The notes under the pieces are model-generated. The model had not been told where the DNA came from. It saw only the letters and a program-made list of their open reading frames with translations, and did not search any database. Shown in pieces: positions 18,291 to 49,966 of a stretch of DNA of 64,000 nucleotides. Numbering within the stretch: position 1 is the stretch's first letter; every line of letters starts with the position of its first letter. The stretch covers positions 196,001-260,000 of the forward strand of contig NZ_CP019334.1 of NCBI RefSeq assembly GCF_002163675.1, in the 5' to 3' direction. The DNA comes from Polaribacter sp. SA4-12 (lineage in GTDB: Bacteria > Bacteroidota > Bacteroidia > Flavobacteriales > Flavobacteriaceae). The position numbers and the translations under genes are program-made.

Positions 18291-19148
18291 ATGAACAAAG
18301 AAAAGTGGCTTTTTGAAATAACGCCTAAAAATAATTTATTTGACTTAAATTTAAAAGAGGTTTGGCAATATAGAGATTTGTTGATGCTTTTTGTGAAACG
18401 AGATGTAGTAACTGTATATAAACAAACTATTCTTGGACCACTTTGGTATTTAATTCAGCCTTTATTTACCTCAGTAATTTTCACATTAATTTTTAATAAT
18501 GTAGCTAATATTTCTACAGGAAGCGTGCCTCCGTTTTTATTCAATTTAGCTGGTATAACGATTTGGAATTATTTTAAATCTTGTTTTTCAGCAACTTCAA
18601 ATACATTTAATGCAAATGCGGGTATTTTTGGTAAAGTGTATTTTCCGAGAATAATAGTTCCAATTTCAATTGTGATTTCTAATCTAGTTCGTTTTGGAAT
18701 TCAGTTATTTATTTTTAGTGTTTTTTATTGTTATTATTATTATTATAAGGATGCTGATATTAGCTTAAATAGATATACAATTTTGTTTCCTGTAATGGTC
18801 TTAATAATGGGAATGTTAGGTTTAGGGTTAGGTATGATAATATCTTCAATGGTAACTAAATATAGAGATTTAAAAATATTAGTAGAATTTGGATTACAAT
18901 TACTAATGTATATTTCAGCTGTAATGTATCCTGTGACATATTTTGCTGAAAAATTACCAGAGTATGTTTGGATCATTAAATATAATCCTTTAGCAGTTGT
19001 AATTGAAACTGTAAGGAATCTTTTATTAAATACAGGTGCATTCAATAGTACTATGTTTTTTTACACATTGGTAATAACAGTAATAACCATGTTTTTTGGA
19101 ATTGTTATTTTTAATAAAGCAGAAAAAAGTTTTATAGATACAGTATAA
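18291..19148 (+). CDS. wzm: Polysaccharide ABC exporter permease (Wzm-like)
   Basis: This 285-residue membrane protein is the ABC-2 type permease of an O-antigen or capsule exporter. About six membrane helices are visible, with the family opening LLMLFVKRDVVTVYKQTILG and GPLWYLIQPLF, and the central stretch IVPISIVISNLVRF. It overlaps the ATPase gene by one base (TAATG), so the two are translated as a pair. In Wzm/Wzt systems a finished or nearly finished lipid-linked glycan made in the cytoplasm is exported across the inner membrane. It opens the surface glycan locus. The family is clear; whether the cargo is O-antigen, capsule or a teichoic-like chain is not. Confidence 0.9.
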   Translation: MNKEKWLFEITPKNNLFDLNLKEVWQYRDLLMLFVKRDVVTVYKQTILGPLWYLIQPLFTSVIFTLIFNNVANISTGSVPPFLFNLAGITIWNYFKSCFSATSNTFNANAGIFGKVYFPRIIVPISIVISNLVRFGIQLFIFSVFYCYYYYYKDADISLNRYTILFPVMVLIMGMLGLGLGMIISSMVTKYRDLKILVEFGLQLLMYISAVMYPVTYFAEKLPEYVWIIKYNPLAVVIETVRNLLLNTGAFNSTMFFYTLVITVITMFFGIVIFNKAEKSFIDTV

Positions 19149-20431
19149 TGAGCGAAGTCATATTAAAAGTAGAAAATGTAAGTAAACAATACCGATTAGG
19201 GTTAGTTGGAACTGGGACTATTAAAGACGATTTAAAACGTTGGTGGTATCAATTAAAAGGAAAAGAAGATCCTTTTTTAAAGATAGGAGATGCAAATGAC
19301 AGAAGTACAAAAGGTGAATCAGATTATGTTTGGGCTTTAAAAAACATTGATTTTGAAGTAAATAAAGGAGAAGTTTTAGGTGTAATTGGTAAAAATGGTG
19401 CAGGAAAATCTACTTTATTAAAAATTTTATCAAAAATAACCTCTCCAACAACTGGGAGTATAAAATTTAATGGAAGAATAGCATCTTTATTAGAAGTAGG
19501 AACAGGTTTTCATCCAGAACTTACAGGAAAAGAAAATGTTTATTTAAATGGAGCTATTCTAGGAATGACGAAGGCTGAGATTAGCGATAAATATGATGAA
19601 ATTATTGAGTTTTCTGGTTGTGAGCGATATATTGATACACCTGTAAAAAGATATTCGAGTGGTATGACAGTTCGTTTAGCGTTTGCTGTGGCAGCTTTTT
19701 TAGAACCAGATATTTTAATAATCGATGAAGTATTAGCAGTTGGTGACGCTGAATTCCAAAAGAAAGCAATTGGTAAAATGCAAGATATATCTAAAGGCGA
19801 AGGAAGAACAGTTTTGTTTGTGAGCCATAATATGACAGCTGTAAAGAACCTTTGTACTAGATGCATTAATTTAGAAAATGGAATTGTAACTTTTGATGGA
19901 GATGTGAAAGAAGCTGTAGACAAGTATTTAACCGTTGAAAAGAAAATATTTGAAATAGATTTAAAAAATAGGGTTGATAGAAAAGGGACAGGAAAAGTAA
20001 AATTTAAAAGCGTGGAGTTTTTAAATAAGAAAAATGAAAAACTGGACCATATTTCATCAGGTATACCTTTAAATATAAAATGTGTTTTTGACAATTATTT
20101 ATCAGAGGATAAAGTTTATAAAGCAAGATTTGATGTAAATATTTATAATGAAAACGAAGTTTTTTTAACTCAATTAACTACTTTTTCAGATAAAAAGGAA
20201 TGTATTATAAATTCAAAAAATGAATTCTTTACAATTTTAATACCTAAGCTTAATTTATTACAGGGTAAATATATTTTGTCAATTTATTGTAAAATAAATG
20301 AAGATGAAGCTGATTGGATTGAAAATGCAGTTTGTTTTGATGTGCAATCAGGAGATTATTTTAATTCAGGAAGAGTAATGCCTAAAGGATTTGGAATATT
20401 TGCAACTGATCATAAAGTAAACATTACATAA
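19148..20431 (+). CDS. wzt: Polysaccharide ABC exporter ATPase with C-terminal glycan-binding-type domain (Wzt-like)
   Basis: This 427-residue ATPase has Walker A GKNGAGKST (81-89), signature YSSGMTVRLAFA and Walker B ILIIDEVLAVGD in the first ~250 residues. The remaining ~175 residues form a beta-rich extension (from about IDLKNRVDRKGTGKVKF) like the Wzt C-terminal domain that, in well-studied systems, recognises the chemically capped end of the chain before export. This suggests the chain carries a specific terminal modification; a methyltransferase encoded downstream (23954-24859) could supply it. The last base of wzm overlaps its ATG. Confidence 0.9.
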   Translation: MSEVILKVENVSKQYRLGLVGTGTIKDDLKRWWYQLKGKEDPFLKIGDANDRSTKGESDYVWALKNIDFEVNKGEVLGVIGKNGAGKSTLLKILSKITSPTTGSIKFNGRIASLLEVGTGFHPELTGKENVYLNGAILGMTKAEISDKYDEIIEFSGCERYIDTPVKRYSSGMTVRLAFAVAAFLEPDILIIDEVLAVGDAEFQKKAIGKMQDISKGEGRTVLFVSHNMTAVKNLCTRCINLENGIVTFDGDVKEAVDKYLTVEKKIFEIDLKNRVDRKGTGKVKFKSVEFLNKKNEKLDHISSGIPLNIKCVFDNYLSEDKVYKARFDVNIYNENEVFLTQLTTFSDKKECIINSKNEFFTILIPKLNLLQGKYILSIYCKINEDEADWIENAVCFDVQSGDYFNSGRVMPKGFGIFATDHKVNIT

Positions 20432-20434
20432 AGA

Positions 20435-21259
20435 ATGATAAAAGTTGATCTCTGGGGTAGAATGGGAAATCAAATGTTTCAATATGCATTCGCTGTAAAC
20501 ACCTCAAAAAAGTTTAAAACGTTTTTTTTAATAATGCCCAAAGAAAAGTTTGAATTAATTAAATTTTTTAAATTAGATTTTTTAACTAGATTATGTTATA
20601 ATAAATTCATTTTTAGGTTTTATCGTTTTATTGTTGCTAAAGTATTTCTATTTCAATATATCCTTCAAAATAATGAAGGAAGTATAGAGTTGAATAATAA
20701 TAAATGTTATAAAGGTTTTTTTCAATCTGAAGGTTACTTTGTGAACTCGAAAAAAGTAATTCAAAATAAATTCAAAATAAAAAAAGAATGGAAAAAAAAA
20801 TATAGAGAAAAATATTATTCAATTTTTAATGAATCAGATAAAATTATTGTAATGCATATTAGAAGAACCGATTATGTTAATTTTGGAGGTGATCATGTTG
20901 GTGGGAAAAACTTAACACTTCCAATGTCTTATTATGATAATTGTTTAAGTTTAATAAATAATTTAGAAGAATACAAAGTAGTTTGTATTAGTGACGATAT
21001 TAATTTTGTTAAAGATTATTTTAAAGAAAGAGTAAACTATTTTTTTTTAAAAAATGAAGCAATAATTGATTTTCAAATAATTTTGAATGCAGAAATAGCT
21101 ATAATTGCAAACAGTTCGTTTTCTTGGTGGGCTGCTTATTTAAATAATAAAAAAAATAAAATAATTTATGCTCCAAAATATTGGTTCGGGTTTAAAGTAA
21201 ATACTGAGATACCAGAAAATATAATACCCGAAAATTTTTTAACAGTAGAAACCAACTAA
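20435..21259 (+). CDS. GT11 alpha-1,2-fucosyltransferase-like glycosyltransferase
   Basis: The 274 residues show the GT11 hallmarks: N-terminal GRMGNQMFQYAFA (8-20), the GDP-fucose-binding motif HIRRTDYVNF (141-150) and the C-terminal NSSFSWWAAYLN. GT11 enzymes transfer fucose from GDP-fucose in alpha-1,2 linkage to galactose, building H-type (blood-group O-like) ends. It follows wzt by 3 bp. No gmd/fcl genes for GDP-fucose are in the window, so the donor must come from elsewhere. Family is clear; the linkage is inferred from family knowledge. Confidence 0.88.
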   Translation: MIKVDLWGRMGNQMFQYAFAVNTSKKFKTFFLIMPKEKFELIKFFKLDFLTRLCYNKFIFRFYRFIVAKVFLFQYILQNNEGSIELNNNKCYKGFFQSEGYFVNSKKVIQNKFKIKKEWKKKYREKYYSIFNESDKIIVMHIRRTDYVNFGGDHVGGKNLTLPMSYYDNCLSLINNLEEYKVVCISDDINFVKDYFKERVNYFFLKNEAIIDFQIILNAEIAIIANSSFSWWAAYLNNKKNKIIYAPKYWFGFKVNTEIPENIIPENFLTVETN

Positions 21260-21284
21260 TTCATACTATAAAACTAAATATATA

Positions 21285-23042
21285 ATGTGTGGAATTAATG
21301 CCTTTTTTTCATATCAAAAAATAAACAATTCTATAATTAGTAGATTAAAATCTTGTAATGCAGATATGATTTATCGAGGGCCAAATGAACAAGATGTTTG
21401 GTACAATAATAAAATGGCCTTGGGTCAAGTAAGACTATCTATTATTGGCGTTGATAATGGACATCAGCCATTATTTAATGAAGATAAAAGTTTAGTCCTT
21501 GTATGTAATGGTGAAATATATAATTACAAAGAATTAAAGTCTGATTTAATTGGAAAAGGACACCACTTTTCATCTGAAACAGATTCTGAGGTTATTTTAC
21601 ATTTATATGAAGAGTATCCAGAGAATTTTAATGATAAACTTGAAGGAATGTTTGCTTATTGTTTATATGATATAAATAAAGAGAAACTAATTGTAGGTAG
21701 AGATATTGCTGGAAAAAAACCGCTTTATTATGCAAAAACAGATGAGGGTATTATTTTTTCATCGGAAGTTAAAGTTATAAAAAAATATTTCTTAAAAAAT
21801 CCGTCATTAAATTTAGAAGTTTTAAGACAAACCCAAAAATTTTCTTATTCTATATCTCCAAATACAACTTATGTTAATGATATTTTAAAATTACCTTATG
21901 CGAGTTATGCTACAATTTCAGTTGACAAAGGTTATAATATTGATGTAAAAAGGTATTTTAAACGAAATATCAATCCAACTTTTGGGGGTAGTTATGAAGA
22001 GGCTTGTTTAGAAATAAAAAGATTATTATATAAAGCTGTTGAAAAAAGGTTGCAAAGTGAAGTTCCTGTGGGAATTTTATTAAGTGCAGGGATTGATTCT
22101 TCAGCAATTGCAGCTATTACTAAAGAATTTAAAGAAGATGTTAGTGTACTTTCGGCAGGATATAAAGGGAATCATGAGGTAGATGAAAGAAGAGAAGCAA
22201 AAAAATTTAGTAATTTAAAAGGTTTTAAATGGAATGAAATTGAATTAGACGAAAATAATTTTAATGGTAAATTCACTAAAATTATGTCTATACTAGATGA
22301 GCCAAATGGTGATGTTGCAATGTTTGCTCAATGGGAAATATATAAAAAAGCAAAAGAGTTAGGATTTACAGTTTTACTAAGTGGTAATGGAGGAGATGAA
22401 TTGTTTTACGGATATAAATCACACAATGATTTTGCTTTAGGTTTGGATTGGACTAACACTCAAAAAAACAAAATGCCTTTGCGGAGTAAAAAGGTAATAT
22501 CAAAACATTATATATACCAAATATTTAAGTTGTTGGTTTCAAAAATTGACAACCCGTTAAATAAAATTAATATTAGAAATGATTACCCATTATTTGATGA
22601 ATTAGAAAAAAGCGCTTTTGAACAAAGTTTACCTTTAGATAGAAATGATTGGCATAGGGTAGATTATAAGGATTATATTGATAAAGTTTATTATTATTTA
22701 AATTACGCTTGGTTAACAAATAACTGTTATTTTTTAGCAGATAAATTAGCTATGGCAAATTCAATTGAAGTTAGAAGTCCCTTTGCTGATATTGAATTAA
22801 TTAAATTTGTAGATACATTGCCTTTAGAATATAAGTTTAGAAATCAACAACCAAAGCAAATTTTAAAAGATAGTTTAAAAGGTGTTTTACCTGTTTATGT
22901 ACTTAATAGAGAAAAATCGGGATTTACACCTCCAACATCATTTATTAATAATATTGTATCTAATTATAAAAGCAGTTATTTTAATGAACACCCTAGAACT
23001 TATGCTCAATTAGTAACTGATTATTTTGCAAAAACTATTTAA
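21285..23042 (+). CDS. Asparagine synthase-like glutamine amidotransferase, first copy
   Basis: This 585-residue AsnB-family protein has an N-terminal glutaminase domain with the required nucleophile Cys2 (MCGINAF), followed by GEIYNYKEL and the synthetase domain with pyrophosphate loop LSAGIDSSA, in which the second residue of the usual SGGxDSS is Ala. In sugar clusters, AsnB-like enzymes amidate uronic or other acidic sugars rather than aspartate. It is followed by a glycosyltransferase 3 bp downstream. A housekeeping asparagine synthetase role cannot be excluded, but its place and a second copy argue for sugar amidation. Confidence 0.85.
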   Translation: MCGINAFFSYQKINNSIISRLKSCNADMIYRGPNEQDVWYNNKMALGQVRLSIIGVDNGHQPLFNEDKSLVLVCNGEIYNYKELKSDLIGKGHHFSSETDSEVILHLYEEYPENFNDKLEGMFAYCLYDINKEKLIVGRDIAGKKPLYYAKTDEGIIFSSEVKVIKKYFLKNPSLNLEVLRQTQKFSYSISPNTTYVNDILKLPYASYATISVDKGYNIDVKRYFKRNINPTFGGSYEEACLEIKRLLYKAVEKRLQSEVPVGILLSAGIDSSAIAAITKEFKEDVSVLSAGYKGNHEVDERREAKKFSNLKGFKWNEIELDENNFNGKFTKIMSILDEPNGDVAMFAQWEIYKKAKELGFTVLLSGNGGDELFYGYKSHNDFALGLDWTNTQKNKMPLRSKKVISKHYIYQIFKLLVSKIDNPLNKINIRNDYPLFDELEKSAFEQSLPLDRNDWHRVDYKDYIDKVYYYLNYAWLTNNCYFLADKLAMANSIEVRSPFADIELIKFVDTLPLEYKFRNQQPKQILKDSLKGVLPVYVLNREKSGFTPPTSFINNIVSNYKSSYFNEHPRTYAQLVTDYFAKTI

Positions 23043-23045
23043 ATT

Positions 23046-26145: not shown

Positions 26146-26147
26146 AT

Positions 26148-26921: not shown

Positions 26922-26941
26922 CTTAATAAAGTTTAAAAATT

Positions 26942-27922: not shown

Positions 27923-27930
27923 TAAAAAAA

Positions 27931-29121: not shown

Positions 29122-29146
29122 CTATATATCAAGTAAATTTAATTTA

Positions 29147-30085: not shown

Positions 30086-30137
30086 TAATTAAAAACATTT
30101 TTTATACTTTTAAAATGAATACCTTAAAATATTAAGA

Positions 30138-31019: not shown

Positions 31020-31027
31020 AAGTTACA

Positions 31028-36055: not shown

Positions 36056-36070
36056 TAAAAAAGATAAACA

Positions 36071-37111: not shown

Positions 37112-38234
37112 TCAAAAAAAAATAGTATTCCTTACTGGAACTCGTGCTGATTTTGGGAAATTAAAGTCCTTAATAAAAATTACACAAGAGAATTCAAATT
37201 TTGATGTTCAAATATTTGCAACAGGAATGCATTTAGATGAAAAATATGGTTCTACTGTAAATGAGATTTATAAAAGTGGATTTAAAAATATTCATACTTT
37301 TAAAAATCATGCAGGTGCTGAGTTTATGGATAGAACTTTAGCAAAAACAATAACTGGATTTTCAGAATATATTGCAATTCAAAAACCAGATTTAATTGTA
37401 ATTCATGGAGATAGAGTAGAAGCATTAGCAGGTGCAATTGTTGGAAGTTTAAATAATATATTGGTTTCCCACATTGAAGGAGGCGAGGTTTCTGGTACAA
37501 TTGACGAATTAATACGCCATTCTGTAAGTAAATTATCTCACTTACATTTAGTTTCTAATAACGAAGCTAAAAAGAGATTAATACAAATGGGGGAATTAGA
37601 AAGTTCTATTTATGTTATAGGTTCGCCTGATTTAGATTTAATGAACCCTTCTAATTTACCTAGCCTAGAAAAGGTGAAAGAATATTACGAAATTTCTTTT
37701 GAAGAATATGCAATTGTAATGTTTCACCCTGTAACAACTGATTATAAAAATATAAAAGAAAATTCGAAGGAATTTGTAGATGCGTTATTAAAATCAAATG
37801 AAAATTATGTCGTAATATTTCCGAATAATGATTTAGGAACAGAAGAAATTCTTGATGAATATAAAAGGTTAGAAAATAATTCTAAATTTAAAATATATCC
37901 ATCTTTAAGATTCGAATATTTTTTAAGACTTTTAAAAGAAACCAAGTTTATAATAGGTAACTCTAGTGCAGGAGTTAGAGAAGCACCTTATTATAAAGTA
38001 CCAACAATAGATATCGGAACAAGACAAAACAATAGAGGGCAAGCAAGTTCTATTATAAATATAAATTATAATTTTGATAAAATTTTGTTAGCTATTAATA
38101 ATATAAAAGTAGTAGAACAAGATATTAACATAACAGAATTTGGAGAGGGGAATAGTAATGAACTTTTCTTACATTTGTTAAAATCAGAATTGATTTGGAA
38201 AGTTAATTGCCAAAAACAGTTTCAAGACTTATAA
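37104..38234 (+). CDS. neuC: UDP-N-acetylglucosamine 2-epimerase (hydrolysing)
   Basis: NeuC converts UDP-GlcNAc to ManNAc and UDP, feeding NeuB. The 376 residues have the GT-B-like epimerase fold: [51 protein letters not shown] and the C-terminal [13 protein letters not shown]. It starts with TTG inside the neuB stop overlap (TTGAGTAA), which suggests coupled translation. Following genes lie 1 bp away. No enzyme for bacillosamine-type sugars is seen, so ManNAc is the simple product. Confidence 0.9.
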
Positions 38235-38235
38235 T

Positions 38236-38889: not shown

Positions 38890-38895
38890 TTTAAG

Positions 38896-40293: not shown

Positions 40294-40298
40294 TAATT

Positions 40299-41432
40299 AT
40301 GCACATTTGTTTTATTTCTAATGAATTTCCCTTACCAAATATTTCTTTTGGAGGAGCTGGTACGTTTTTATTGACCTACTCAGAACTGTTAATTAAAAAC
40401 GGTCACAAGGTTTCTATTGTTGGTGTAAAGGAGGGAGATGAAATAATTACAAAGATCAATAAGGTATCTATTTATTATGCAAAAAGATCAAATATTAAAG
40501 GGTTTTCTTGGTATGTTAACTCAAAGTCAATTAGTAAATTAGTTAACAAAATAAATATAACAAATAAAATAGATATTTTAGAAGCACAAGAAGCTGGTTT
40601 TGCTTTTGTTGATACTCCAAAAGGAATAAAGAAAATTGTTAGAATGCATGGTGGGCATTATTTTTTTCACATTTTTGAAAATAAAAAATTGAATTGGAAA
40701 AAAGCTTTATTAGAAAGAATAACTTTTAAAAAAGCAGATGCTGTAATTGCAACTTCAGATTTTGTTAAAATTCAAACTTCTAAATTTATTGATTTTTCTA
40801 AAAAGAAAAATATTACTATAAATAACCCTATATTAATAGACCAGTTTTACCCTGCAGATAAAAATAAGATTATAAAAGGAAGTATTGTTTTTGCAGGTAC
40901 AATTTGTGAAAAAAAAGGAATTAGACAATTATGTTTAGCAATTCCAGAAATAGCTAAAGTATTTCCAGAAATTCATCTATATATTTATGGAAGAGATTGG
41001 TTCTTTTCCGATGGTAAGTTATATAAAGATTGGTTATTAGATCAACTGTCTGATGAAATTAAAAGTAAAATTACATTTAGAAAACCAGTTCCTTATAGTG
41101 AATTACCTAAAGTTTATGAATTTGGTGAAATTTGCGTTTTTCCTTCTCATATGGAAGTTCAAGGATTAGTTGCTCCTGAAGCAATGTCTATGGAAAAATT
41201 AGTGATATTTACAAAATATGGCCCAGGACCAGAAACTATAGATGATGGTGTTAATGGGTTTCTTTGTGAACCATTAATAGTTAAAAGTATTTCAGATGTT
41301 GTTGTTAAGGTTTTGAATAACAGACAGAATAATAGGGGAATAGAAATAAGAGCAAGGGAAAAAGTTATTAGTAAGTTTTTACCAGAAATTATCTTTAAAA
41401 AAAATATAGACTTTTACACTTCAATTTTTTAA
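40299..41432 (+). CDS. Glycosyltransferase family 4
   Basis: This is a 377-residue GT-B enzyme with an N-terminal FGGAGTFLLTYSELL, donor-domain start VFAGTICEKKGIRQL and the acidic motif MEVQGLVAPEAMSMEK. Glycine-rich loops and spacing match the GT4 family. It is 5 bp after the orphan GT-B gene. Specificity is unknown. An 84-bp gap without a clear promoter follows. Confidence 0.85.
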   Translation: MHICFISNEFPLPNISFGGAGTFLLTYSELLIKNGHKVSIVGVKEGDEIITKINKVSIYYAKRSNIKGFSWYVNSKSISKLVNKINITNKIDILEAQEAGFAFVDTPKGIKKIVRMHGGHYFFHIFENKKLNWKKALLERITFKKADAVIATSDFVKIQTSKFIDFSKKKNITINNPILIDQFYPADKNKIIKGSIVFAGTICEKKGIRQLCLAIPEIAKVFPEIHLYIYGRDWFFSDGKLYKDWLLDQLSDEIKSKITFRKPVPYSELPKVYEFGEICVFPSHMEVQGLVAPEAMSMEKLVIFTKYGPGPETIDDGVNGFLCEPLIVKSISDVVVKVLNNRQNNRGIEIRAREKVISKFLPEIIFKKNIDFYTSIF

Positions 41433-41516
41433 ATATCAGAAATTGTATCAATTCTTAATCAGATATATAAAGCTTAAATTTGTTAGATAAAAAGGTTCTC
41501 AATTAAAATAAATAAT

Positions 41517-42059
41517 TTGTTTAAAACTGATATTTTAAAATATAAAAAGTATAGTGGTAAATCTTCTTTAGTTTTATTACTAACTACTCAAGGTCTTTGG
41601 GCTCTTTTTGTTTATAGATCTTCAAATTATATATATAAAAGTAAATTGCCAAGTATTATAAAAAAACCACTTTTATTAGTATCTATTATTTTTCAAAAAT
41701 GGATTGAAATTGTTTCTGGAATTTCAATACCATATTCTTGTTCTATTGGACATTCATTTTATATTGGCCATTTTGGAGGAATAATAATAAACTCAAACGC
41801 TATAATTGGTAACAATTGTAATATTTCACAAGGTGTTACAATCGGTGTGAGTGGAAGAGGAAATAAAAGAGGGGTTCCTGTTCTTGATGATAATATCTAT
41901 ATTGGTGCAAATTCGGTTTTAGCAGGAAATATTAAAATTGGAAGTAATTGTGTTATAGCTGCAAATTCTTTAATTATAGATAATATAGAGAAAAATTCTA
42001 CAGTTATTGGTGTCCCCGCGAAAATTATTAATAATTTAGGATCTAAAGGATATATTTAA
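41517..42059 (+). CDS. Serine acetyltransferase-like hexapeptide O-acetyltransferase
   Basis: This 180-residue protein has a helical N-terminus and a left-handed beta-helix of hexapeptide repeats with the SAT-type segment FYIGHFGGIIINSNAIIG, SQGVTIGVSGRGNKRG and VIGVPAKIINN. In a sugar locus such an enzyme most likely O-acetylates a glycan residue rather than serine. It starts with TTG, since no ATG fits in frame. The stop overlaps the next ATG by one base. Acceptor is unknown. Confidence 0.82.
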   Translation: MFKTDILKYKKYSGKSSLVLLLTTQGLWALFVYRSSNYIYKSKLPSIIKKPLLLVSIIFQKWIEIVSGISIPYSCSIGHSFYIGHFGGIIINSNAIIGNNCNISQGVTIGVSGRGNKRGVPVLDDNIYIGANSVLAGNIKIGSNCVIAANSLIIDNIEKNSTVIGVPAKIINNLGSKGYI

Positions 42060-43177
42060 TGAGGTTTTTAATTATTTCAGATGCTCCAATTTTAAAAAAA
42101 GAGAATAAGTTGTTTTCTTATGCACCATATGTAAATGAGATAAAACTATGGATGAAATATTTTGATGATGTTGTGATTGTATCACCTACTAAATATAAAA
42201 AAGAACTATTAATTGAATCATTTAATAGAGATATAAAAGTTTCTTCAATACCTTCAATATCCTTGATTTCTTTTTTTGATACTATTAAGAGTATTTTAGT
42301 ATTGCCTTTTATAATTTTCAAGCTTTTTATTAATATGTTTAAAGCAGATCATATTCATCTAAGAAATCCTGGTAGCATAGGTTTATTAGGCTGTTTTGTC
42401 CAAATTTTTTTTCCTTTTACACCTAAAACTTCAAAATATGCAGGGAATTGGGATCCTAAAAGCAAACAACCAATAAGTTATCGAATTCAAAAATGGATTT
42501 TATCCAATACCATTTTAACTAGAAATTGTAAAGTTTTGGTTTATGGAAAATGGGAAAATCAAACTAAAAATATTATTCCTTTTTTTACCGCATCCTATAA
42601 AAAAGAGGAGATTATAGAAGTACCAAAAAAGTGTTTTTCTAGTGTAATTAAATTTATATTTGTAGGAACTTTTTCTGAAGGAAAACAACCTTTGTTGAGT
42701 GTAAAAACAATTCAGAGTTTACTTTCTAAAAACATAGACGTTCAATTAGATATGTATGGTGAAGGAGACAAATTTAATGAAGTTAAGAGGTATATTAGTG
42801 AGCACAGATTAGAGAATAATATATTTTTGCATGGAAATAAACCCAAAGAAATTGTAAAAAAAGCATTTATAGAAGCTCATTTTCTTATTTTTATTTCTAA
42901 ATCAGAAGGTTGGCCAAAGGTTGTCGCTGAGGCGATGTTTTGGAAATGTTTACCAATTTCGACAGATGTTTCTTGTGTAGCATATATGTTAGATTATGGT
43001 AAGAGAGGCACAATTGTAGCACCAAATGTTTTGATAGAAGATTTGGTTGAAATTGTTTTAAATTATATGAATAATGAAGTTGTGTATCAACAGCAATCTT
43101 TAGAGGCTCAAAAATGGTCTCAAAATTTTACGTTAGATAAATTTGAGTTTGAAATAGGAAAACTAATGAAGCTTTGA
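42059..43177 (+). CDS. Glycosyltransferase family 4-like
   Basis: This 372-residue GT-B enzyme shows HLRNPGSIGLLG in the acceptor half, then KFIFVGTFSEGKQPLL and ISKSEGWPKVVAEAMFWK in the donor half, with the E-x7-E region. Its last four bases overlap the next gene (TTGA). Specificity is unknown. Confidence 0.83.
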   Translation: MRFLIISDAPILKKENKLFSYAPYVNEIKLWMKYFDDVVIVSPTKYKKELLIESFNRDIKVSSIPSISLISFFDTIKSILVLPFIIFKLFINMFKADHIHLRNPGSIGLLGCFVQIFFPFTPKTSKYAGNWDPKSKQPISYRIQKWILSNTILTRNCKVLVYGKWENQTKNIIPFFTASYKKEEIIEVPKKCFSSVIKFIFVGTFSEGKQPLLSVKTIQSLLSKNIDVQLDMYGEGDKFNEVKRYISEHRLENNIFLHGNKPKEIVKKAFIEAHFLIFISKSEGWPKVVAEAMFWKCLPISTDVSCVAYMLDYGKRGTIVAPNVLIEDLVEIVLNYMNNEVVYQQQSLEAQKWSQNFTLDKFEFEIGKLMKL

Positions 43178-44244
43178 AAGAATTAAAAGTCTTACAAATT
43201 ACCGACTCGTTAAATGTTGGAGGAACAGAGGTATTAGCTGTTAATATGGCTAATGTCTTTTTAGATTACAATATCTCATCTCATTTTTGTACTACAAGAC
43301 AAGAAGGTTTTTTAAAGGATAAGTTAAAAAAAGAAGTACGTTATATTCATTTAAAGAGAAAGTCTACTTTAGATTTTAAAGCCTTAATTAAACTTAAAAA
43401 ATATATAAAAAAGAATCAAATTCATATTGTTCACGCACATTCTACTTCTTTATTTTTTGCTTGTGTGTTAAAAATGATGTATCCAAACTTCAAACTATTT
43501 TGGCATAATCATACAGGAGTAAATGTTAACTTAAGTGGTTTGAAATTCTATATAATTAAATTTCTTACGAAGTTTACAAGTGGAATCGTGAACGTAAACG
43601 AAGAATTAGCAGTGTGGTCAAAAAATAGATTAGGGAACAAGAATGTTATTCAAGTAAATAATTTTCCATTATTTACAGATACGGATCGTTTTACGAATTT
43701 ATATGGAGTAATTAATAAAAGAATTGTTTGTTTAGCAGCTTTAAGACCAGAAAAAGATCATTTAAACTTATTAGAAGCATTTAATATTGTGCAAAATAAG
43801 TTTCCAGATTGGACTTTACATTTAATAGGTAAAGATTATAATAATGAATACTCAAATAAAATAAAAAGATATATTAGCAATCACAAGTTAAAAGAAAATG
43901 TTTTTATGTATGATATGTGTTCAGATATCAAAAATATTTTAGAACAAGCATCTATTGGAGTTTTGTCTTCAGAAAATGAAGGATTACCAATTTCTTTATT
44001 AGAGTATGGTTTAGCAAATTTACCCGTTTTAACAACTGATGTTGGGGAATGTAAAAAGGTAATCAATCACCATAAAGCAATTGTTGTTCCTAAAAGAAGT
44101 GATATTTTTGCAAAAGCTTTATTAGAAATTATTGAGGGGAATTTATTAAGGAAAGAGATTTCAGATTCACTAAATAAGAATGTTATCTCTTTTTTCTCTA
44201 AAGAAAATTTTATTTCAAAAATTAAAAAATTTTATGATAAATAA
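43174..44244 (+). CDS. Glycosyltransferase family 4
   Basis: This is a 356-residue GT-B enzyme: LNVGGTEVLAVNMANVF at the N-terminus, IVHAHSTSLFFAC, then CLAALRPEKDHLNLLEA and SENEGLPISLLEYGLAN. It starts with TTG inside the stop codon of the previous gene. It ends 11 bases into the Wzy/WaaL-like gene. Specificity is unknown. Confidence 0.85.
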   Translation: MKELKVLQITDSLNVGGTEVLAVNMANVFLDYNISSHFCTTRQEGFLKDKLKKEVRYIHLKRKSTLDFKALIKLKKYIKKNQIHIVHAHSTSLFFACVLKMMYPNFKLFWHNHTGVNVNLSGLKFYIIKFLTKFTSGIVNVNEELAVWSKNRLGNKNVIQVNNFPLFTDTDRFTNLYGVINKRIVCLAALRPEKDHLNLLEAFNIVQNKFPDWTLHLIGKDYNNEYSNKIKRYISNHKLKENVFMYDMCSDIKNILEQASIGVLSSENEGLPISLLEYGLANLPVLTTDVGECKKVINHHKAIVVPKRSDIFAKALLEIIEGNLLRKEISDSLNKNVISFFSKENFISKIKKFYDK

Positions 44245-45562
44245 AATATTAGGTAATAAGTTTTTATTTATTTGTGTTCACATAGTTTTGGGCTTTCTAG
44301 TTACTTTCTTACCCATTGCTAAAATTTATACTTTACTTATTTTTGTTATTGGTGCCTTTATTATTTATACAACTAGAAATAGAAAAGAAGAAGCTTTGTT
44401 TTTAATAAGTTATTTAGTGGGGGCTGAGGTTTTTATAAGAATGTCAGGAGGTACCTTATTGTATGAAACAGGTAAATATGGAATGATTTTATTTATTCTT
44501 CTAGGGCTGTTTTTAGGTCCAGTAAAACAAAAACAAACAGTATCATTTATATTATATATATTACTTTTATTAATAGGTATTATATTTACTGACACTCCAT
44601 CAGGTGAATCAATTAGAAATGCTATATCATTTAATTTAAGTGGGCCTATAACTTTAGGCTTATTTGCTCTTTATTGTTATAAAAGGACAATAACATTAAC
44701 AGAATTTAAAGAGTTGCTTTTTCTCTGTTTATTGCCTATATTTTCTATGGTTAGTTATGTTTATTTTAGAACACCAGATTTAGAAGAAATGGTTTTTGGT
44801 ACTTTATCAAATTTTGACACATCTGGAGGTTTTGGCCCCAATCAGGTGGCTACTATGATTGGTTTCGGAGCATTTATTTTAGGTGTTTTTTTATTTATCA
44901 GAATTAATTTATCTGTATATATTTTTTTAGATGGTTTCTTTTTAACATATTTCATATACAGAGGTTTATTAACATTTTCAAGAGGAGGTATGATTACAGC
45001 AGTGGTTGCGTTTTTGTTTTTTGCCTTTTTTATGTTTTTATTTCAGAAGGTAACTCTTGTTAAAGTTTCTAAATATGTTTTCGTTTCACTAATTTTATTT
45101 TTAGGAATTTGGTTGTATACATCAAATATTACCGGAGGAATGATTGCTAATAGATATGCAGGAGAAAATACTATGGGTGTTAAGAAAAAAGATGTAACTG
45201 CAGGAAGAGGGAAGATTATTAATATGCAGTTAGAAAGTTTTTATGAATCTCCAATTTTTGGTATTGGAGTTGGTAATGGTAAGTATAAAAGAATTGAAAC
45301 TGGAGAGCATGTAACTGCTGCTTCTCATAATGAGGTTAGTAGATTAATTGAAGAGCATGGTTCATTAGGCATAATTGCACTGTTGATACTTTTAATAGCA
45401 CCTTTACAGAATATGTATTTTAGTAATAATTACCAAAGAGCATTTTTAATTTCTTTTTATATTTTTTGGTTTTTAACGATTAACCATTCTGCAATGAGAA
45501 TCGCATTTCCTGCTTTTGTTTATGGATTAAGTTTGATTAGAATTGTACCAGATGAATCGTAA
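44234..45562 (+). CDS. O-antigen polymerase/ligase-type membrane protein (Wzy or WaaL)
   Basis: This ~442-residue protein has about ten membrane helices and the PF04932-type region near the C-terminus: TAGRGKIINMQLESFYESP, FGIGVGNGKYK and ASHNEVSRLIEEHGSLG. Members either polymerise repeat units (Wzy) or ligate glycan to lipid A core (WaaL). In a locus with an ABC exporter, ligation is at least as likely as polymerisation. I place the start at ATG 44234 (MINKILGNK); a more upstream ATG at 44180 would overlap the previous gene by 65 bases. The stop overlaps the next gene by 11 bases. Confidence 0.8.
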   Translation: MINKILGNKFLFICVHIVLGFLVTFLPIAKIYTLLIFVIGAFIIYTTRNRKEEALFLISYLVGAEVFIRMSGGTLLYETGKYGMILFILLGLFLGPVKQKQTVSFILYILLLLIGIIFTDTPSGESIRNAISFNLSGPITLGLFALYCYKRTITLTEFKELLFLCLLPIFSMVSYVYFRTPDLEEMVFGTLSNFDTSGGFGPNQVATMIGFGAFILGVFLFIRINLSVYIFLDGFFLTYFIYRGLLTFSRGGMITAVVAFLFFAFFMFLFQKVTLVKVSKYVFVSLILFLGIWLYTSNITGGMIANRYAGENTMGVKKKDVTAGRGKIINMQLESFYESPIFGIGVGNGKYKRIETGEHVTAASHNEVSRLIEEHGSLGIIALLILLIAPLQNMYFSNNYQRAFLISFYIFWFLTINHSAMRIAFPAFVYGLSLIRIVPDES

Positions 45563-46565
45563 AAAAATATTATATATAGGTAACAATTTAACAGGGAAAA
45601 CAAAGTATAATTCTACCATAAAAGTATTATCTACGTTGTTAAAAGAAGAAGGTTTTTCTGTAATAGTTTCATCAGATAAAATAAGTAAACTATTAAGGTT
45701 ATTAGATATGTGTATTTCTCTCGTAAAAAATAGAAATAAAGTAGATTATGTTCTAATTGATACTTTTAGTACCATAAATTTCTATTATGCATTTATCATA
45801 TCTCAATTAGCAAGAGTTTTTAAATTAAAGTACATTCCTATTTTACATGGAGGTAATTTACCTGAAAGATTAGAACGAAATACGTTTTTAAGTGATTTGA
45901 TTTTTAAGAACTCATATAAAAATGTAGCTCCTTCAAATTACCTAAAATCCTCTTTTGAGAAAAAAGGATATGATACCATGTTTATTCCTAATATTTTAGA
46001 GATAGAAAACTATAATTTTAAGAATAGAAAACAACTTGAGCCTAAATTATTTTGGGTTAGAGCTTTTAAAGAAATTTACAATCCTACGTTAGCAATCAAA
46101 GTTTTAGATTTACTTAAAAAAGAATATCCTAAAGCAAAACTATGTATGGTTGGACCTTTTGTTGATGATAGTTATGATGATTGCTTAAAGTTGATTTCTG
46201 AATTAAAATTAGAAAGTTCTGTAGAATTTACAGATGTTCTTCTAAAAGAAGATTGGCATAAAAAATCTGAAGATTATGACATCTTTATTAATACAACAAA
46301 TTTTGACAATACACCTGTTAGTGTAATGGAAGCGATGGCTTTGGGGTTACCAATTGTTAGTACAAATGTTGGTGGAATGCCTTTTTTAATAGATGATACA
46401 ACTGATGGATTATTAGTCACTAAATCTAATACAGAAGAAATGACGAGTGCAATTGTTTCTTTACTAAATAATAATCACCCTAACTTAGCAATAAATGCTA
46501 GAAAGAAAGTGGGAAATTTTAGTTGGAATAATAACAAAGGAAAGTGGTTTAAAATTCTAAAATGA
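45552..46565 (+). CDS. Glycosyltransferase family 4
   Basis: This is a ~337-residue GT-B enzyme. N-terminal KKILYIGNNLTGKTKYN, then LFWVRAFKEIYNPTLAIKVL and FDNTPVSVMEAMALGLP in the donor half. I start it at ATG 45552; a TTG three codons upstream is less likely. Its stop overlaps the next gene start (ATGA). Specificity is unknown. Confidence 0.84.
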   Translation: MNRKKILYIGNNLTGKTKYNSTIKVLSTLLKEEGFSVIVSSDKISKLLRLLDMCISLVKNRNKVDYVLIDTFSTINFYYAFIISQLARVFKLKYIPILHGGNLPERLERNTFLSDLIFKNSYKNVAPSNYLKSSFEKKGYDTMFIPNILEIENYNFKNRKQLEPKLFWVRAFKEIYNPTLAIKVLDLLKKEYPKAKLCMVGPFVDDSYDDCLKLISELKLESSVEFTDVLLKEDWHKKSEDYDIFINTTNFDNTPVSVMEAMALGLPIVSTNVGGMPFLIDDTTDGLLVTKSNTEEMTSAIVSLLNNNHPNLAINARKKVGNFSWNNNKGKWFKILK

Positions 46566-47854
46566 TGATCAGAAAAATTATCTACACTTTAGGACAACAA
46601 TTGAGAAATCCCTCTTTTAAAATTAAATACCATTTTTTAAAGGAATCTGAAAAATGGTCTTTAGATGAGTTAGAGCAATATCAGCTAAAAAAGTTTAAAG
46701 AAATTTTACAAGTAGCTTACAATAATTCTGAGTTTTATAAAAGGAAGTTCGATGAACTAAATGTAGATATTCAAAAAGTAAGTTCATTAGATGATATTAA
46801 ACTATTTCCTATAATAACAAAAAAGGATTTAATAAAATTTGCACCTCAAATACATACGAATCTGACTTTTAAAAAGAAGTTTTTAGCAACAACCTCAGGT
46901 ACATCAGGAGAGTCTTTAAAGTTTTTTAGAGAGGAAGAAGTAGATTCGTTTAATAGAGCAGCAATACAAAGAGGATATTCTTGGTACGACATAAATCCTT
47001 GGGATAGAAATGGATATTTTTGGGGCTTTAGCTTTTCTTTTATCAGTAAACAAAAAAATAAGATTTTAGATTTTCTACAAAATAGATTTAGAATTTTTAG
47101 CTATAACGAAAAGTCACTAAAAAGTTTTATTAGAAAAGCTCAAAAAGCGAACTATATTCATGGGTATTCATCAATGATATACCAAACAGCAATTTTAATT
47201 AATAAATTAAAATTACCGAAACCGTTACAGATTAAAATGATTAAAGGTACTTCAGAGAAAATTTTTGAAAGTTATCAATCTCCAATTAAAGAAGCTTTTG
47301 GGGTTAAAATTATTAGTGAATATGGGGCAACTGAATCTGGTATTATAGCTTTTGAATGTGAACAAGGAAGTATGCATTTAAATATGGAGGGGGTTTTGGT
47401 TGAAGAAATAGATAATGAAATATTAGTAACAAATTTACAATTACATTCTTTTCCAATAATTCGTTATAAATTAGGTGATTATATCTCTTTAGCTCCAAGA
47501 GAGAAGAAATGTTCATGTGGCAAAAATCATTTAATTTTAGATGAAGTTACAGGTAGAATAGGAGAGAATATTTATGGGGTTGAGAATACATATCCGAGTC
47601 TGTATTTTTATTACATATTTAAGAATTTATCAAAAAAAGAGAAAATAGTTTTAAACTATCAAGTTGTTCAAAATCAAAAAGGGAAATTGATTTTTTTGTT
47701 AGATATTAAAGTAAATGTAGATGTTGAAAGAAAATTAGTTGCTGAGATTGAAAAATATTTTAAAAAAGATATTATTTTTGAGATAAAACAACAAGCAGAG
47801 TTCATCTACACTAAAGGAAAACTGAAAAATTTTATTTCTGAAATAAATGAATAA
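46562..47854 (+). CDS. CapK-like adenylate-forming enzyme (phenylacetate-CoA ligase family)
   Basis: This 430-residue protein is related to phenylacetate-CoA ligases and capsule-locus CapK proteins: an ATP loop LATTSGTSGESLKFF, ISEYGATESGIIAFE and RYKLGDYISL, plus a CSCGK segment near 320. Such enzymes activate a carboxylic acid as acyl-adenylate; in glycan loci they may supply an acyl decoration. No acyl carrier protein gene lies nearby. Substrate is unknown. It overlaps both neighbours by a few bases, so it is part of the operon. Confidence 0.8.
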   Translation: MMIRKIIYTLGQQLRNPSFKIKYHFLKESEKWSLDELEQYQLKKFKEILQVAYNNSEFYKRKFDELNVDIQKVSSLDDIKLFPIITKKDLIKFAPQIHTNLTFKKKFLATTSGTSGESLKFFREEEVDSFNRAAIQRGYSWYDINPWDRNGYFWGFSFSFISKQKNKILDFLQNRFRIFSYNEKSLKSFIRKAQKANYIHGYSSMIYQTAILINKLKLPKPLQIKMIKGTSEKIFESYQSPIKEAFGVKIISEYGATESGIIAFECEQGSMHLNMEGVLVEEIDNEILVTNLQLHSFPIIRYKLGDYISLAPREKKCSCGKNHLILDEVTGRIGENIYGVENTYPSLYFYYIFKNLSKKEKIVLNYQVVQNQKGKLIFLLDIKVNVDVERKLVAEIEKYFKKDIIFEIKQQAEFIYTKGKLKNFISEINE

Positions 47855-48590
47855 CCTAGTTTCTATTATTACACCAAATTATAATTCTGAGAAATTTATT
47901 TCAGAAACAATTAATAGTGTTTTAAATCAGACCTATAAAAATTGGGAAATGATTATTGTAGATGATGTTTCTACGGATAAAAGTATAGATATTATTACTT
48001 TTTTTTGTAAACAAGATTCTAGAATTCAATTGCATCAATTATCGGATAATTCTGGAGCTGCTATCGCAAGAAATAAAGCAATATCTTTAGCAAAGGGTAC
48101 TTTTATAGCTTTCTTAGATAGTGATGATTTATGGTTGCCTAAAAAATTAGAATTCCAGTTAGATTTTATGCTGAAAAATAATTACTCTTTGAGTTATACA
48201 TCTTATGAAATTATAAATGAAGAAGGGAATAGTACTAACAAAACTATAAAGTGTAAAGATAAATTAGATTATAACAGAATGTTGTATTCTAATGAAATAG
48301 GATGTTTAACAGCAATGTATAATAAAGATGTTTTGGGTAAAATATTTATGCCTAAAATTAGAAAAAGACAAGATTATGGTTTGTGGTTAAAAGTTTTAAA
48401 ATCAGAAAAGTATGCTTTTGGTTTAGCTACAGTTTTGGCTCAGTATAGAGATCGAAGTCAATCGATATCAAATAATAAAGTAGAAATGCTTAAATGGAAT
48501 TGGAATTTGTATAAAAATGTTGAAAATTTATCTTATTTTCGAGCTACATATTATACACTATGTAATGTAATAAATAAACTGCTTAAATGA
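47847..48590 (+). CDS. Glycosyltransferase family 2
   Basis: This compact 247-residue GT2 enzyme has VSIITPNYNSEKFISETI, VDDVSTDKSI, ARNKAISLAKGTFIAFLDSDD and a RKRQDYGLWLKVL acceptor-side segment. It is the last cytoplasmic transferase before the initiating transferase and overlaps it by ATGA. It could add the second sugar to the lipid-linked first sugar, which is a positional guess. Confidence 0.86.
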   Translation: MNNLVSIITPNYNSEKFISETINSVLNQTYKNWEMIIVDDVSTDKSIDIITFFCKQDSRIQLHQLSDNSGAAIARNKAISLAKGTFIAFLDSDDLWLPKKLEFQLDFMLKNNYSLSYTSYEIINEEGNSTNKTIKCKDKLDYNRMLYSNEIGCLTAMYNKDVLGKIFMPKIRKRQDYGLWLKVLKSEKYAFGLATVLAQYRDRSQSISNNKVEMLKWNWNLYKNVENLSYFRATYYTLCNVINKLLK

Positions 48591-49966
48591 TTTCGAAATC
48601 TTATTATAATATATCTGAAAGGAAAATTCTATTAAGAATTGTAGATATTGCAATAATTATTTTAAGTCTTTTTTTATCATCAATTTATCTAAATTTTAAT
48701 TATTTCTTTTTTTCAAATGACTATATTTTAAATTGGTCATTATTACTTATTTTTTATTATTTGATATTTGGTGAAATCTTTTTGCTGTACAATTTAAATA
48801 TTTCAAATAATAGATATACAGTCGTTAGAAGTGTAATATTAACAGCTTTTTTTACTACAATATTTTATATTTTCACACCTTATATTTCACCCGTTTTACC
48901 ATCTAATAGATTGCAAATAGTATATTTCTTTCTAATACTATCTTTACCCGTTATTATTTGGCGGTTTTTATATATGTGGTTGATTTTTTCACCAAAATAT
49001 TTCAAAAACATTGTTTTTATTGGGGAGTCAGATAGAATAAAAAGTATACTTAAAAAAATTCAAAAAGACAATATTCATAATTTACATGCTTATTTATCTG
49101 ATAAGGAAGTAACTGGTATTCATAATTTTCAGGATATTTCTACTGCTAAGATTTCTTCTTTAATTGATAAGAATAGTGTTACTGAAGTGATTGTTTCTCT
49201 AAAAGGATTATTACCAGAAGTTGTTGAAAAATTGAACAAAGAGCTTGTTTTATTATTTGAACAAGGAGTAAATATAGTTAGTTATGAAACGTTTTATGAA
49301 GAAGTAACATTAAGAGTTCCTAAAGAATATTTAAAAAATAATTTTTACAAACATTTAAATTTCAGTAAGAATAATAGCAACCGTTTTTATCTTTTTGGTT
49401 TAAGATTTGTAGATATTATTCTTTCAATTTTTGGTCTTATTGTACTTTTCTTTTTAATACCTATCTTATTTTTAGGTAATCTTATGGGTAATAGAGGATC
49501 TCTATTTTATTCGCAAGATAGAGTTGGTCAAAATGGAAGGAAATTCAATATTTTTAAGCTAAGATCTATGGTTGAAAATGCTGAATCTAATGGAGCAGTT
49601 TGGGCAGTAAAAAATGATAAAAGAATTACTGCTTTTGGCAAATTTTTAAGAAATACGAGGTTGGATGAATTTCCTCAGTTTTACAATATATTGAAAGGCG
49701 ATATGAGTATTATTGGACCAAGACCAGAAAGACCTGAATTTGTGAAAGACTTAGAAAATAAAATTCCTTTTTACGCAATTAGGAATGTTGTTAGACCAGG
49801 TTTAACAGGTTGGGCACAAGTTAACTATCCTTATGCAAATACAATTGAAGAGCAAGAGACTAAATTGCGTTATGACTTGTATTATATAAAAGAAAGAAGT
49901 GCTTTTATGGACTTTAAAATATTGATAAAAACGGTTACTACTGTTTTATTTTATAAAGGTCAATAA
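48587..49966 (+). CDS. Polyprenyl-phosphate sugar-phosphate transferase (WbaP/WcaJ-type)
   Basis: This 459-residue enzyme starts glycan synthesis by moving a sugar phosphate from UDP-sugar to undecaprenyl phosphate. It has four N-terminal membrane helices (to about residue 130), a Rossmann-like middle domain, a further membrane hairpin (IILSIFGLIVLFFLIPILF) and the catalytic domain with FKLRSMVENAES, RNTRLDEFPQFYNILKGD and IIGPRPERPEF. The full-length WbaP/WcaJ layout points to hexose-1-phosphate as first sugar, though not certain. Its 3' end overlaps the convergent DUF4105 gene by 21 bp. Confidence 0.9.
   Translation: MISKSYYNISERKILLRIVDIAIIILSLFLSSIYLNFNYFFFSNDYILNWSLLLIFYYLIFGEIFLLYNLNISNNRYTVVRSVILTAFFTTIFYIFTPYISPVLPSNRLQIVYFFLILSLPVIIWRFLYMWLIFSPKYFKNIVFIGESDRIKSILKKIQKDNIHNLHAYLSDKEVTGIHNFQDISTAKISSLIDKNSVTEVIVSLKGLLPEVVEKLNKELVLLFEQGVNIVSYETFYEEVTLRVPKEYLKNNFYKHLNFSKNNSNRFYLFGLRFVDIILSIFGLIVLFFLIPILFLGNLMGNRGSLFYSQDRVGQNGRKFNIFKLRSMVENAESNGAVWAVKNDKRITAFGKFLRNTRLDEFPQFYNILKGDMSIIGPRPERPEFVKDLENKIPFYAIRNVVRPGLTGWAQVNYPYANTIEEQETKLRYDLYYIKERSAFMDFKILIKTVTTVLFYKGQ

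What the first reader, a model, noticed from the sequence alone, without database searches (positions are those of the whole stretch)
18291..49966. A 32-kb locus for a vertebrate-like sialylated and fucosylated surface glycan in a flavobacterium
Seen: neuB-neuC-neuA, a GT11 and a GT10 fucosyltransferase, 16 glycosyltransferases in all, and an ABC exporter in one run of tightly packed plus-strand genes. Known: GT11 makes H-type and GT10 Lewis-type fucosylation; NeuBCA gives CMP-Neu5Ac. Inferred: the product may combine sialic acid with Lewis/H-like fucose, an unusual mix for a free-living marine-type bacterium. It could serve host mimicry, phage defence or algal/animal association.
Basis: partly seen in the sequence, partly recalled or inferred. 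Interest (0 to 1): 0.8.

Follow-up and report, generated by a model that had tools for sequence, protein, structure and literature searches.

The report
Sialic-acid surface-sugar locus, unclassified transferase
This probably marine bacterium carries, at a fixed place in its chromosome, genes for a surface sugar chain that very likely contains sialic acid and fucose; the part worth testing is an unnamed enzyme family usually found with sialic-acid-type genes, which may be what attaches those sugars.

Summary
In detail: neuB-neuC-neuA, a GT11, a GT10, 16 glycosyltransferase-like genes and a Wzm/Wzt exporter lie in one plus-strand run; gmd and an fcl-like gene for GDP-fucose lie elsewhere in the genome. 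The 'vertebrate-like' reading is only partly supported: nothing shows H or Lewis linkages, and nonulosonates are described as widespread in non-pathogens. The locus is a fixed surface-glycan site: 6 of 6 complete GTX-bearing genus relatives have it between the same flanking genes, with an exchangeable nonulosonate cassette. The gene after neuA (38896-40293, 'GTX', 465 aa) has no Pfam, NCBIfam or PDB-sequence match and a confident GT-B model. Its family sits with nonulosonate genes of at least three kinds: 66 of 80 loci within about 10 kb, 6 more on the same contig, 8 cut off by contig ends. Among 59 relatives, 13 of 29 genomes with a NeuB match have GTX, 0 of 30 without. I propose that GTX is a CMP-nonulosonate transferase of an unclassified family. 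Against this: its tree follows the sugar type no better than its neighbours' trees do, the sialyltransferase HP histidine is missing, and 16 NeuB-bearing genomes lack GTX.

The parts
18291..19148 (+). Wzm-like ABC exporter membrane subunit
   Evidence: PF01061 63.3 bits; same place in 6 of 6 complete GTX-bearing relatives
19148..20431 (+). Wzt-like ABC exporter ATPase with C-terminal Wzt_C domain
   Evidence: PF00005 and PF14524; 6 of 6 relatives
20435..21259 (+). GT11 fucosyltransferase-like
   Evidence: PF01531 60.9 bits; HIRRTDY visible in the translation, motif recalled; weak homologues at this locus in G001 (69 bits) and G033 (61 bits), 2 of 6 relatives
21285..23042 (+). AsnB-like glutamine-dependent amidotransferase
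   Evidence: PF00733, PF13537
23046..23957 (+). GT-A-like putative glycosyltransferase (my reading)
   Evidence: only a marginal PF00483 match, 21.5 vs 21.2 bits
23954..24859 (+). methyltransferase
   Evidence: PF13489
24859..26145 (+). GT4-like
   Evidence: PF13692/PF00534
26148..27922 (+). two GT2 genes (26148-26921, 26942-27922)
   Evidence: PF00535
27931..29121 (+). GT4-like
   Evidence: PF00534
29147..30085 (+). GT10 alpha-1,3-fucosyltransferase-like
   Evidence: PF18025 + PF00852; best solved relative is the alpha-1,3-fucosyltransferase entry 2nzw, 122 bits
30138..31019 (+). GT2
   Evidence: PF00535
31028..31957 (+). SDR sugar epimerase/dehydratase, below all NCBIfam cut-offs
   Evidence: PF01370
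31941..32966 (+). GT2-like (below cut-off)
   Evidence: PF00535 20.5 vs 23.3 bits; relatives in 39 of 80 GTX loci
33049..34164 (+). GT4-like
   Evidence: PF00534
34169..36055 (+). second AsnB-like amidotransferase
   Evidence: PF00733
36071..37111 (+). neuB, N-acetylneuraminate synthase type
   Evidence: TIGR03569 401.2 bits > 399.65; PDB SiaC 479 bits against 137 for pseudaminic synthase 8h2c
37104..38234 (+). neuC, hydrolysing UDP-GlcNAc 2-epimerase
   Evidence: TIGR03568 420 bits; the only Epimerase_2 match in the genome
38236..38889 (+). neuA, CMP-nonulosonate synthetase
   Evidence: PF02348; best PDB match 6ifd CMP-N-acetylneuraminate synthetase 164 bits; TIGR03584 166 bits is below its cut-off of 205.7
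38896..40293 (+). GTX: unclassified GT-B protein, proposed CMP-nonulosonate transferase
   Evidence: no Pfam/NCBIfam match at E 0.001 and no PDB-sequence match at E 1; AF2 pLDDT 92.3; GT-B matches; neighbourhoods
40299..41432 (+). GT4d, frequent partner right after GTX
   Evidence: GT4 relatives (E 1e-20) in 76 of 80 GTX loci, within about 200 bases of GTX in 57
41517..42059 (+). hexapeptide acyltransferase
   Evidence: PF00132; 21 of 80
42059..44244 (+). GT4e and GT4f
   Evidence: PF00534; relatives in 68 and 65 of 80 GTX loci
44180..45562 (+). Wzy_C membrane protein (ligase or polymerase)
   Evidence: PF04932 45.3 bits; 60 of 80 GTX loci
45543..46565 (+). GT4g
   Evidence: PF00534; 55 of 80
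46562..47854 (+). PaaK/F390-synthetase-like adenylating enzyme
   Evidence: below all NCBIfam cut-offs; no Pfam match at E 0.001
47847..48590 (+). GT2
   Evidence: PF00535
48587..49966 (+). initiating polyprenyl-phosphate sugar transferase
   Evidence: PF02397, TIGR03025 325.7 > 295.55; 51 of 80

Best explanation
This is the strain's version of a fixed-site surface-glycan locus of its (Polaribacter-like) genus. Inferred mechanism: the sugar-phosphate transferase (48587) starts the chain on a polyprenyl carrier; the conserved GT4 genes (45543, 43174, 42059, 40299) build a core; NeuC-NeuB-NeuA turn UDP-GlcNAc into CMP-Neu5Ac or a close relative; GTX (38896) moves that nonulosonate from CMP onto the chain; the upstream variable genes, including GT11 and GT10 using GDP-fucose from gmd/fcl at 1.87 Mb, decorate it; Wzm/Wzt export it and the Wzy_C protein ligates or polymerises it. 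Shown by computation: gene content, fixed chromosomal site, the exchangeable nonulosonate cassette, and the tie between the GTX family and nonulosonate genes. Inferred: every enzymatic step, GTX's donor, and attachment to lipid A.
Confidence: 0.55

Rival explanations
1. GTX adds another sugar or group, and the nonulosonate is transferred by a different gene of the conserved module (for example GT4d, 40299). GTX is conserved only because the whole core co-evolves.
For: Co-conservation of GT4d, GT4e, GT4f, Wzy_C, GT4g and the initiating transferase with GTX; GT4e confined to GTX-positive relatives; equal tree correlation with nonulosonate type.
Against: GTX keeps nonulosonate genes without GT4d in G013 and G021 and without strong GT4d/GT4e/GT4f relatives in 5 class-level loci. 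GT4 and GT2 enzymes are not known to use CMP-nonulosonates (recalled, no call). NeuA or NeuC is the gene directly before GTX in 27 of 80 loci; in the rest other genes lie between or no such gene was found.
Confidence: 0.25
2. The glycan is put on proteins (Bacteroidota O-glycosylation or A-LPS-linked secretion cargo) rather than being an LPS O-antigen.
For: Tannerella forsythia attaches nonulosonate glycans to proteins from a cluster with a pse or leg cassette followed by the transferase gene gtfS (PMC6120980, PMC6388019, passages). A PorV-like gene lies just downstream of the locus (below cut-off).
Against: The window has a Wzm/Wzt_C ABC exporter and its 29 proteins gave no flippase hit, whereas the Bacteroides-type O-glycosylation loci start with metG and a wzx flippase (PMC12871550, passages). 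The same paper says that this layout is not conserved over the whole phylum, so the test is weak.
Confidence: 0.2
3. The nonulosonate is not Neu5Ac but another product of a Neu-type NeuB (a di-N-acetyl or otherwise modified relative).
For: NeuB passes its cut-off by only 1.5 bits and NeuA fits no equivalog; NeuC scores equally against a structure named diacetylbacillosamine 2-epimerase and against one named bifunctional UDP-GlcNAc 2-epimerase/ManNAc kinase. DegT aminotransferases and a PglF-like gene (my reading of the translation) exist at 1.85 Mb.
Against: No LegB over its cut-off (best 144 bits, cut-off 475) and no aminotransferase in the cassette; NeuB is far closer to meningococcal SiaC than to pseudaminic synthase in the PDB.
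Confidence: 0.25
4. One reading: a host-mimicking sialyl-Lewis or H-type glycan.
For: GT10 with FucT_N and C-terminal domains and a GT11 are present; GDP-fucose can be made.
Against: No acceptor evidence. Relatives keep the ends of the locus but differ in the middle. Host association is unknown.
Confidence: 0.07

Closest known systems
Tannerella forsythia nonulosonate transferases GtfS / TFUB4_00887 and their cluster
   Same: GT-B type (GtfS) of 445/442 aa; gtfS lies directly behind the CMP-Pse cassette; cassette exchangeable between strains (Pse or Leg) over a conserved glycosyltransferase set (PMC6388019, PMC6120980, passages)
   Different: The product is a protein O-glycan from a cluster with a Wzx-like flippase; the enzymes are described as having DXD and HP motifs and as stringent for their own sugar, whereas GTX lacks the HP histidine. 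Sequence homology could not be tested because GtfS is not held here.
ABC-transporter-dependent (Wzm/Wzt) O-antigen loci
   Same: Wzm, Wzt with Wzt_C, initiating transferase, Wzy_C-family membrane protein, many glycosyltransferases, fixed site with variable middle
   Different: LPS attachment not tested; one Wzy_C protein that could be ligase or polymerase
Bacterial sialyltransferases GT38, GT42, GT52, GT80
   Same: Expected donor CMP-nonulosonate; GT-B fold as in some of these families (recalled)
   Different: No Pfam match for GTX; no HP histidine
CDP-glycerol/ribitol transferases (PF04464, TagF/TarL)
   Different: The window protein itself has no PF04464 match; another relative (L070) instead just passes PF06925

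Membership tests
Neu5Ac synthase (NeuB) | NCBIfam TIGR03569 equivalog cut-off | tested here: met
   401.2 vs 399.65 bits
Hydrolysing UDP-GlcNAc 2-epimerase (NeuC) | TIGR03568 equivalog cut-off | tested here: met
   420 vs 235.9 bits
CMP-Neu5Ac synthetase (NeuA) | specific for Neu5Ac | tested here: inconclusive
   PF02348 over cut-off; TIGR03584 PseF 166.4 below 205.7; best PDB match 6ifd
Legionaminate pathway | LegB equivalog in the genome | tested here: not met
   best 144.4 vs cut-off 475 bits
GT11 | PF01531 cut-off | tested here: met
   60.9 vs 23.9 bits
GT10 | PF00852 and FucT_N cut-offs | tested here: met
   83.6 vs 23.9 and 103.1 vs 27.2 bits
H/Lewis-type glycan | Fuc linked to Gal/GlcNAc of a LacNAc-type acceptor | not testable with these tools
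   needs glycan structure
Known bacterial sialyltransferase families (GT38/42/52/80), for GTX | Pfam family match | tested here: not met
   GTX has no Pfam match at E 0.001
Known bacterial sialyltransferase families (GT38/42/52/80), for GTX | HP motif | tested here: not met
   window plus 80 loci: His at 302 in 0 of 81 (C 62, A 8, N 4, S 4, V 2, gap 1); 4 of 10 distant relatives have it
Known bacterial sialyltransferase families (GT38/42/52/80), for GTX | similar solved structure | tested here: inconclusive
   none among the 50 rows listed in each, which does not exclude it
T. forsythia GtfS-type nonulosonate transferase | sequence homology to GtfS | not testable with these tools
   GtfS sequence not held; two papers asked for were not held
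T. forsythia GtfS-type nonulosonate transferase | gene beside a CMP-nonulosonate cassette | tested here: met
   neuA ends 38889, GTX starts 38896; NeuA or NeuC directly before GTX in 27 of 80 loci
CDP-glycerol transferase PF04464 | Pfam cut-off for the window protein | tested here: not met
   no match
ABC-dependent O-antigen locus | Wzm + Wzt with Wzt_C | tested here: met
ABC-dependent O-antigen locus | product joined to lipid A | not testable with these tools
   needs LPS analysis
Bacteroides-type (LFG) O-glycosylation locus | metG and wzx flippase at the start | tested here: not met
   FTCD and Wzm/Wzt instead

The most novel reading that the evidence does not exclude
GTX founds an unclassified family of CMP-nonulosonate transferases in Bacteroidota that accepts Neu-type, divergent (perhaps Leg- or Pse-like) and KDN-type donors or switches between them readily, works without the HP histidine of known sialyltransferases, and serves as the fixed plug near an exchangeable nonulosonate cassette. 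Many 'hypothetical protein' genes would then gain a function.
Probability: 0.4. Interest if true: 0.65.

Novelty: new variant of a known kind. Interest (0 to 1): 0.45.

Why it matters
Nonulosonate transferases are few: a 2019 review says none had been shown experimentally before the T. forsythia enzymes (PMC6388019, passage; it speaks of Pse/Leg-type transferases, not of sialyltransferases). A family that tracks nonulosonate genes across the Flavobacteriia and some other Bacteroidota would help to predict surface sialylation from genomes of marine bacteria, and would supply new enzymes for making sialo- and related glycans. It also gives a cheap test: delete one gene and look for loss of one sugar.

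Tried and rejected
Vertebrate mimicry was tested only by gene content and left at low weight. Using GT4d (40299) as a negative control for GTX failed, because it is itself a conserved neighbour; GT4e as a second control also proved module-bound. The tree test for tracking of nonulosonate type did not favour GTX over its neighbours. In that test L103 was labelled T3 because its NeuB is cut by the contig end, although its NeuC is Neu-type, so one label is doubtful. GT11, Wzm and Wzt lie more than 17 kb from GTX, so their near absence from the 21-kb loci (0, 1 and 2 of 80) is a limit of the flank and is not used. The GT4 counts rest on E 1e-20 and may include other GT4 paralogues. A phmmer screen for dehydratase/aminotransferase genes near the cassettes was too patchy to type them, and in L070 the genes tried as legB/legC proved to be glycosyltransferases, so the product of the divergent NeuB type is unknown. 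The argument 'two cassettes, two GTX copies' (G041, G309) was dropped as proof, since several genomes have extra NeuB genes without GTX. PF07922 (GT52) in the own genome: no match, but nothing rang in the controls either, so it is no evidence. GT38/42/80 were not searched for genome-wide. Paper searches on nonulosonate transferases in Flavobacteria, new sialyltransferase families, marine Bacteroidetes neuB, Polaribacter Neu5Ac and Tenacibaculum O-antigen sialic acid listed no title on this gene family; only listings and abstract starts were seen there, and the library lacks most subscription journals.
Full report
What is there. The window lies in a 3.99-Mb single-contig genome, 99.87% complete. 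From 18291 to 49966, 29 plus-strand ORFs follow each other with overlaps or gaps of at most 84 bases. Pfam and NCBIfam confirm the exporter, GT11, GT10, NeuB, NeuC and a NeuA-type cytidylyltransferase. Sixteen glycosyltransferase-like genes can be counted if the weak GT2 at 31941, the GT-A-like gene at 23046 and GTX are included. G+C in the locus is 0.22-0.29 per 2-kb bin, against 0.27-0.32 upstream and 0.26-0.30 downstream.

Which sugars. NeuB passes the N-acetylneuraminate synthase cut-off narrowly and scores 479 bits against meningococcal SiaC but 137 against a pseudaminic synthase. NeuC passes its cut-off and is the only Epimerase_2 match in the genome, though its best solved relatives, with equal scores, are a diacetylbacillosamine 2-epimerase and a bifunctional UDP-GlcNAc 2-epimerase/ManNAc kinase. 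No LegB reaches its cut-off. Neu5Ac is therefore the most economical product, but a relative cannot be excluded. GDP-fucose can be made: gmd and an Fcl-like gene lie at 1.871-1.873 Mb in a second polysaccharide locus with Wza/Wzc-like, rml-like, PglF-like and DegT genes (the names of genes not covered by a family search are my reading of the translations).

A fixed, exchangeable locus. In the six other single-contig genus genomes in which one search found GTX (G001, G020, G035, G033, G013, G021), the locus is at the same site. On the left, the relatives of the window's integrase-like gene and of 15314 are present in 6 of 6, RNase Y in 5 of 6 and FTCD in 2 of 6; then come Wzm and Wzt (6 of 6), a variable stretch, NeuB/NeuC/NeuA (6 of 6) and GTX (6 of 6). 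Strong GT4e/GT4f follow in 4 of 6 and GT4d in 4 of 6 (missing in G013 and G021); Wzy_C, GT4g, the initiating transferase and the right flank Lnb, PorV-like, hydrolase, Pss and LptB are found in 6 of 6. In G001 and G020 NeuB resembles that of the window (606-694 bits); in the other four it is a divergent type (168-173 bits). So the nonulosonate cassette is swapped while the ends are kept. On 80 wider loci (E 1e-20, other GT4 paralogues possible): GT4d 76, GT4e 68, GT4f 65, Wzy_C 60, GT4g 55 and the initiating transferase 51 of 80.

Association with nonulosonate genes. Of 80 GTX loci from the genome collection (94 confirmed, the best 80 kept), 66 hold a NeuA, NeuB or NeuC relative within about 10 kb, mostly upstream on the same strand (the NeuB of L110 is on the other strand). 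Of the 14 others, 8 have GTX within 2.4 kb of the upstream contig end, and in 6 the nearest NeuB on the same contig is 11-22 kb away: upstream on the same strand in L037 and L039, while in the four Algoriphagus loci the nearest is downstream or on the other strand (L078 also has one 26 kb upstream). In 59 relatives GTX occurs in 13 of 29 genomes with a NeuB match and 0 of 30 without; 13 of 14 GTX genes are 2.2-10.0 kb from a NeuB. The converse does not hold: 16 NeuB-bearing genomes lack GTX, and G001, G005, G011, G021, G025, G026 and G041 have further NeuB matches away from it. In an even draw of 395 class genomes 24 have a GTX match. For 22 of these (all but G020, which is, and G404, a 27-bit match) I had the window itself or fetched the flanks (24 stretches, L205-L228). 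Of those stretches 13 have NeuA and/or NeuB near GTX (L205, 206, 207, 208, 211, 212, 213, 214, 217, 220, 221, 222, 225), two have only a NeuC-like gene that could be WecB (L215, L219), six have none (L209, 210, 216, 218, 223, 224) and three are contigs too short to tell (L226-228). The cassettes differ: L083 passes the Neu cut-off (401.4 bits), L070 is below both the Neu and Pse cut-offs (303 and 229 bits), and in L113 the genes before GTX are a cytidylyltransferase fused to a KdsC-family phosphatase (KDN-9-phosphatase model 127 bits, below its cut-off of 180) and a short NeuB, a KDN-like set.

Does this single out GTX? Partly. For: NeuA or NeuC is directly before GTX in 27 of 80 loci; in G013 and G021 GTX keeps the cassette without GT4d, and in L217, L220, L221, L222 and L225 it keeps nonulosonate genes while all GT4d/GT4e/GT4f matches are 161 bits or less. 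Against: in close relatives GT4e is just as restricted (11 of 11 in GTX-positive genomes), and on 55 common loci the nonulosonate type needs 13 changes on the GTX tree against 14, 13 and 13 on those of GT4d, GT4e and GT4f (means of 100 label shuffles 19.3-19.8). GTX would then have to accept several nonulosonates or adapt quickly. A review states that several sialyltransferases accept CMP-legionaminate, but also that the two T. forsythia enzymes could not replace each other (PMC6388019, passages).

Comparison. T. forsythia has genetically shown nonulosonate transferases, GtfS (Pse) and TFUB4_00887 (Leg), of similar length (GtfS of GT-B type), in a cluster with an exchangeable pse or leg cassette (PMC6388019 and PMC6120980, passages). 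This is the closest working parallel. Homology could not be tested. The exporter and the flanks of the window differ from the described Bacteroides-type O-glycosylation loci, which begin with metG and wzx, though that layout is said not to hold over the whole phylum (PMC12871550, passages). Nonulosonates in non-pathogens are described as widespread (PMC8053191, passages), so neuBCA in such a bacterium is not by itself surprising.

Verdict. Observation confirmed. The vertebrate-mimic reading is not established. The locus is an ordinary, if rich, variable surface-glycan locus; the notable result is the unclassified family GTX, a testable candidate for a CMP-nonulosonate transferase.

Noticed in passing
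G000:C1:1849500-1878300 (L129, L130): Second polysaccharide locus with Wza/Wzc-like, PglF-like, DegT aminotransferase, rml-like genes, gmd and fcl; likely source of GDP-fucose for the window locus.
   Followed up: partly
window 51136-52230 (-): PorV-like outer-membrane protein (PF19572 23.4 bits, below cut-off 27) just downstream of the locus, conserved there in 6 of 6 complete GTX-bearing relatives; might hint at type IX secretion and glycan attachment.
   Followed up: no
window 13671-14567 (-): Tyrosine recombinase (Phage_integrase, 156.9 bits) near the left border, present in 6 of 6 complete GTX-bearing relatives, so probably a housekeeping Xer-type gene rather than an island integrase.
   Followed up: no
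window 21285-23042 and 34169-36055: Two AsnB-like amidotransferases in the glycan locus, perhaps amidating uronic acids; an AsnB-like gene sits directly upstream of GTX in 6 of 80 loci.
   Followed up: no
L217 (G309:C1:155500-175400) and G041:C18:226600-254082: Regions with two GTX copies and two sets of nonulosonate genes (two NeuA in L217, two NeuB in G041:C18; G041 has a third NeuB elsewhere); good places to see whether each GTX is matched to its own sugar.
   Followed up: partly
L113, L114, L095, L110, L207: GTX near a KDN-like cassette with a long cytidylyltransferase, in L113 fused to a KdsC/KDN-9-phosphatase-like domain (family scan done on L113 only).
   Followed up: partly
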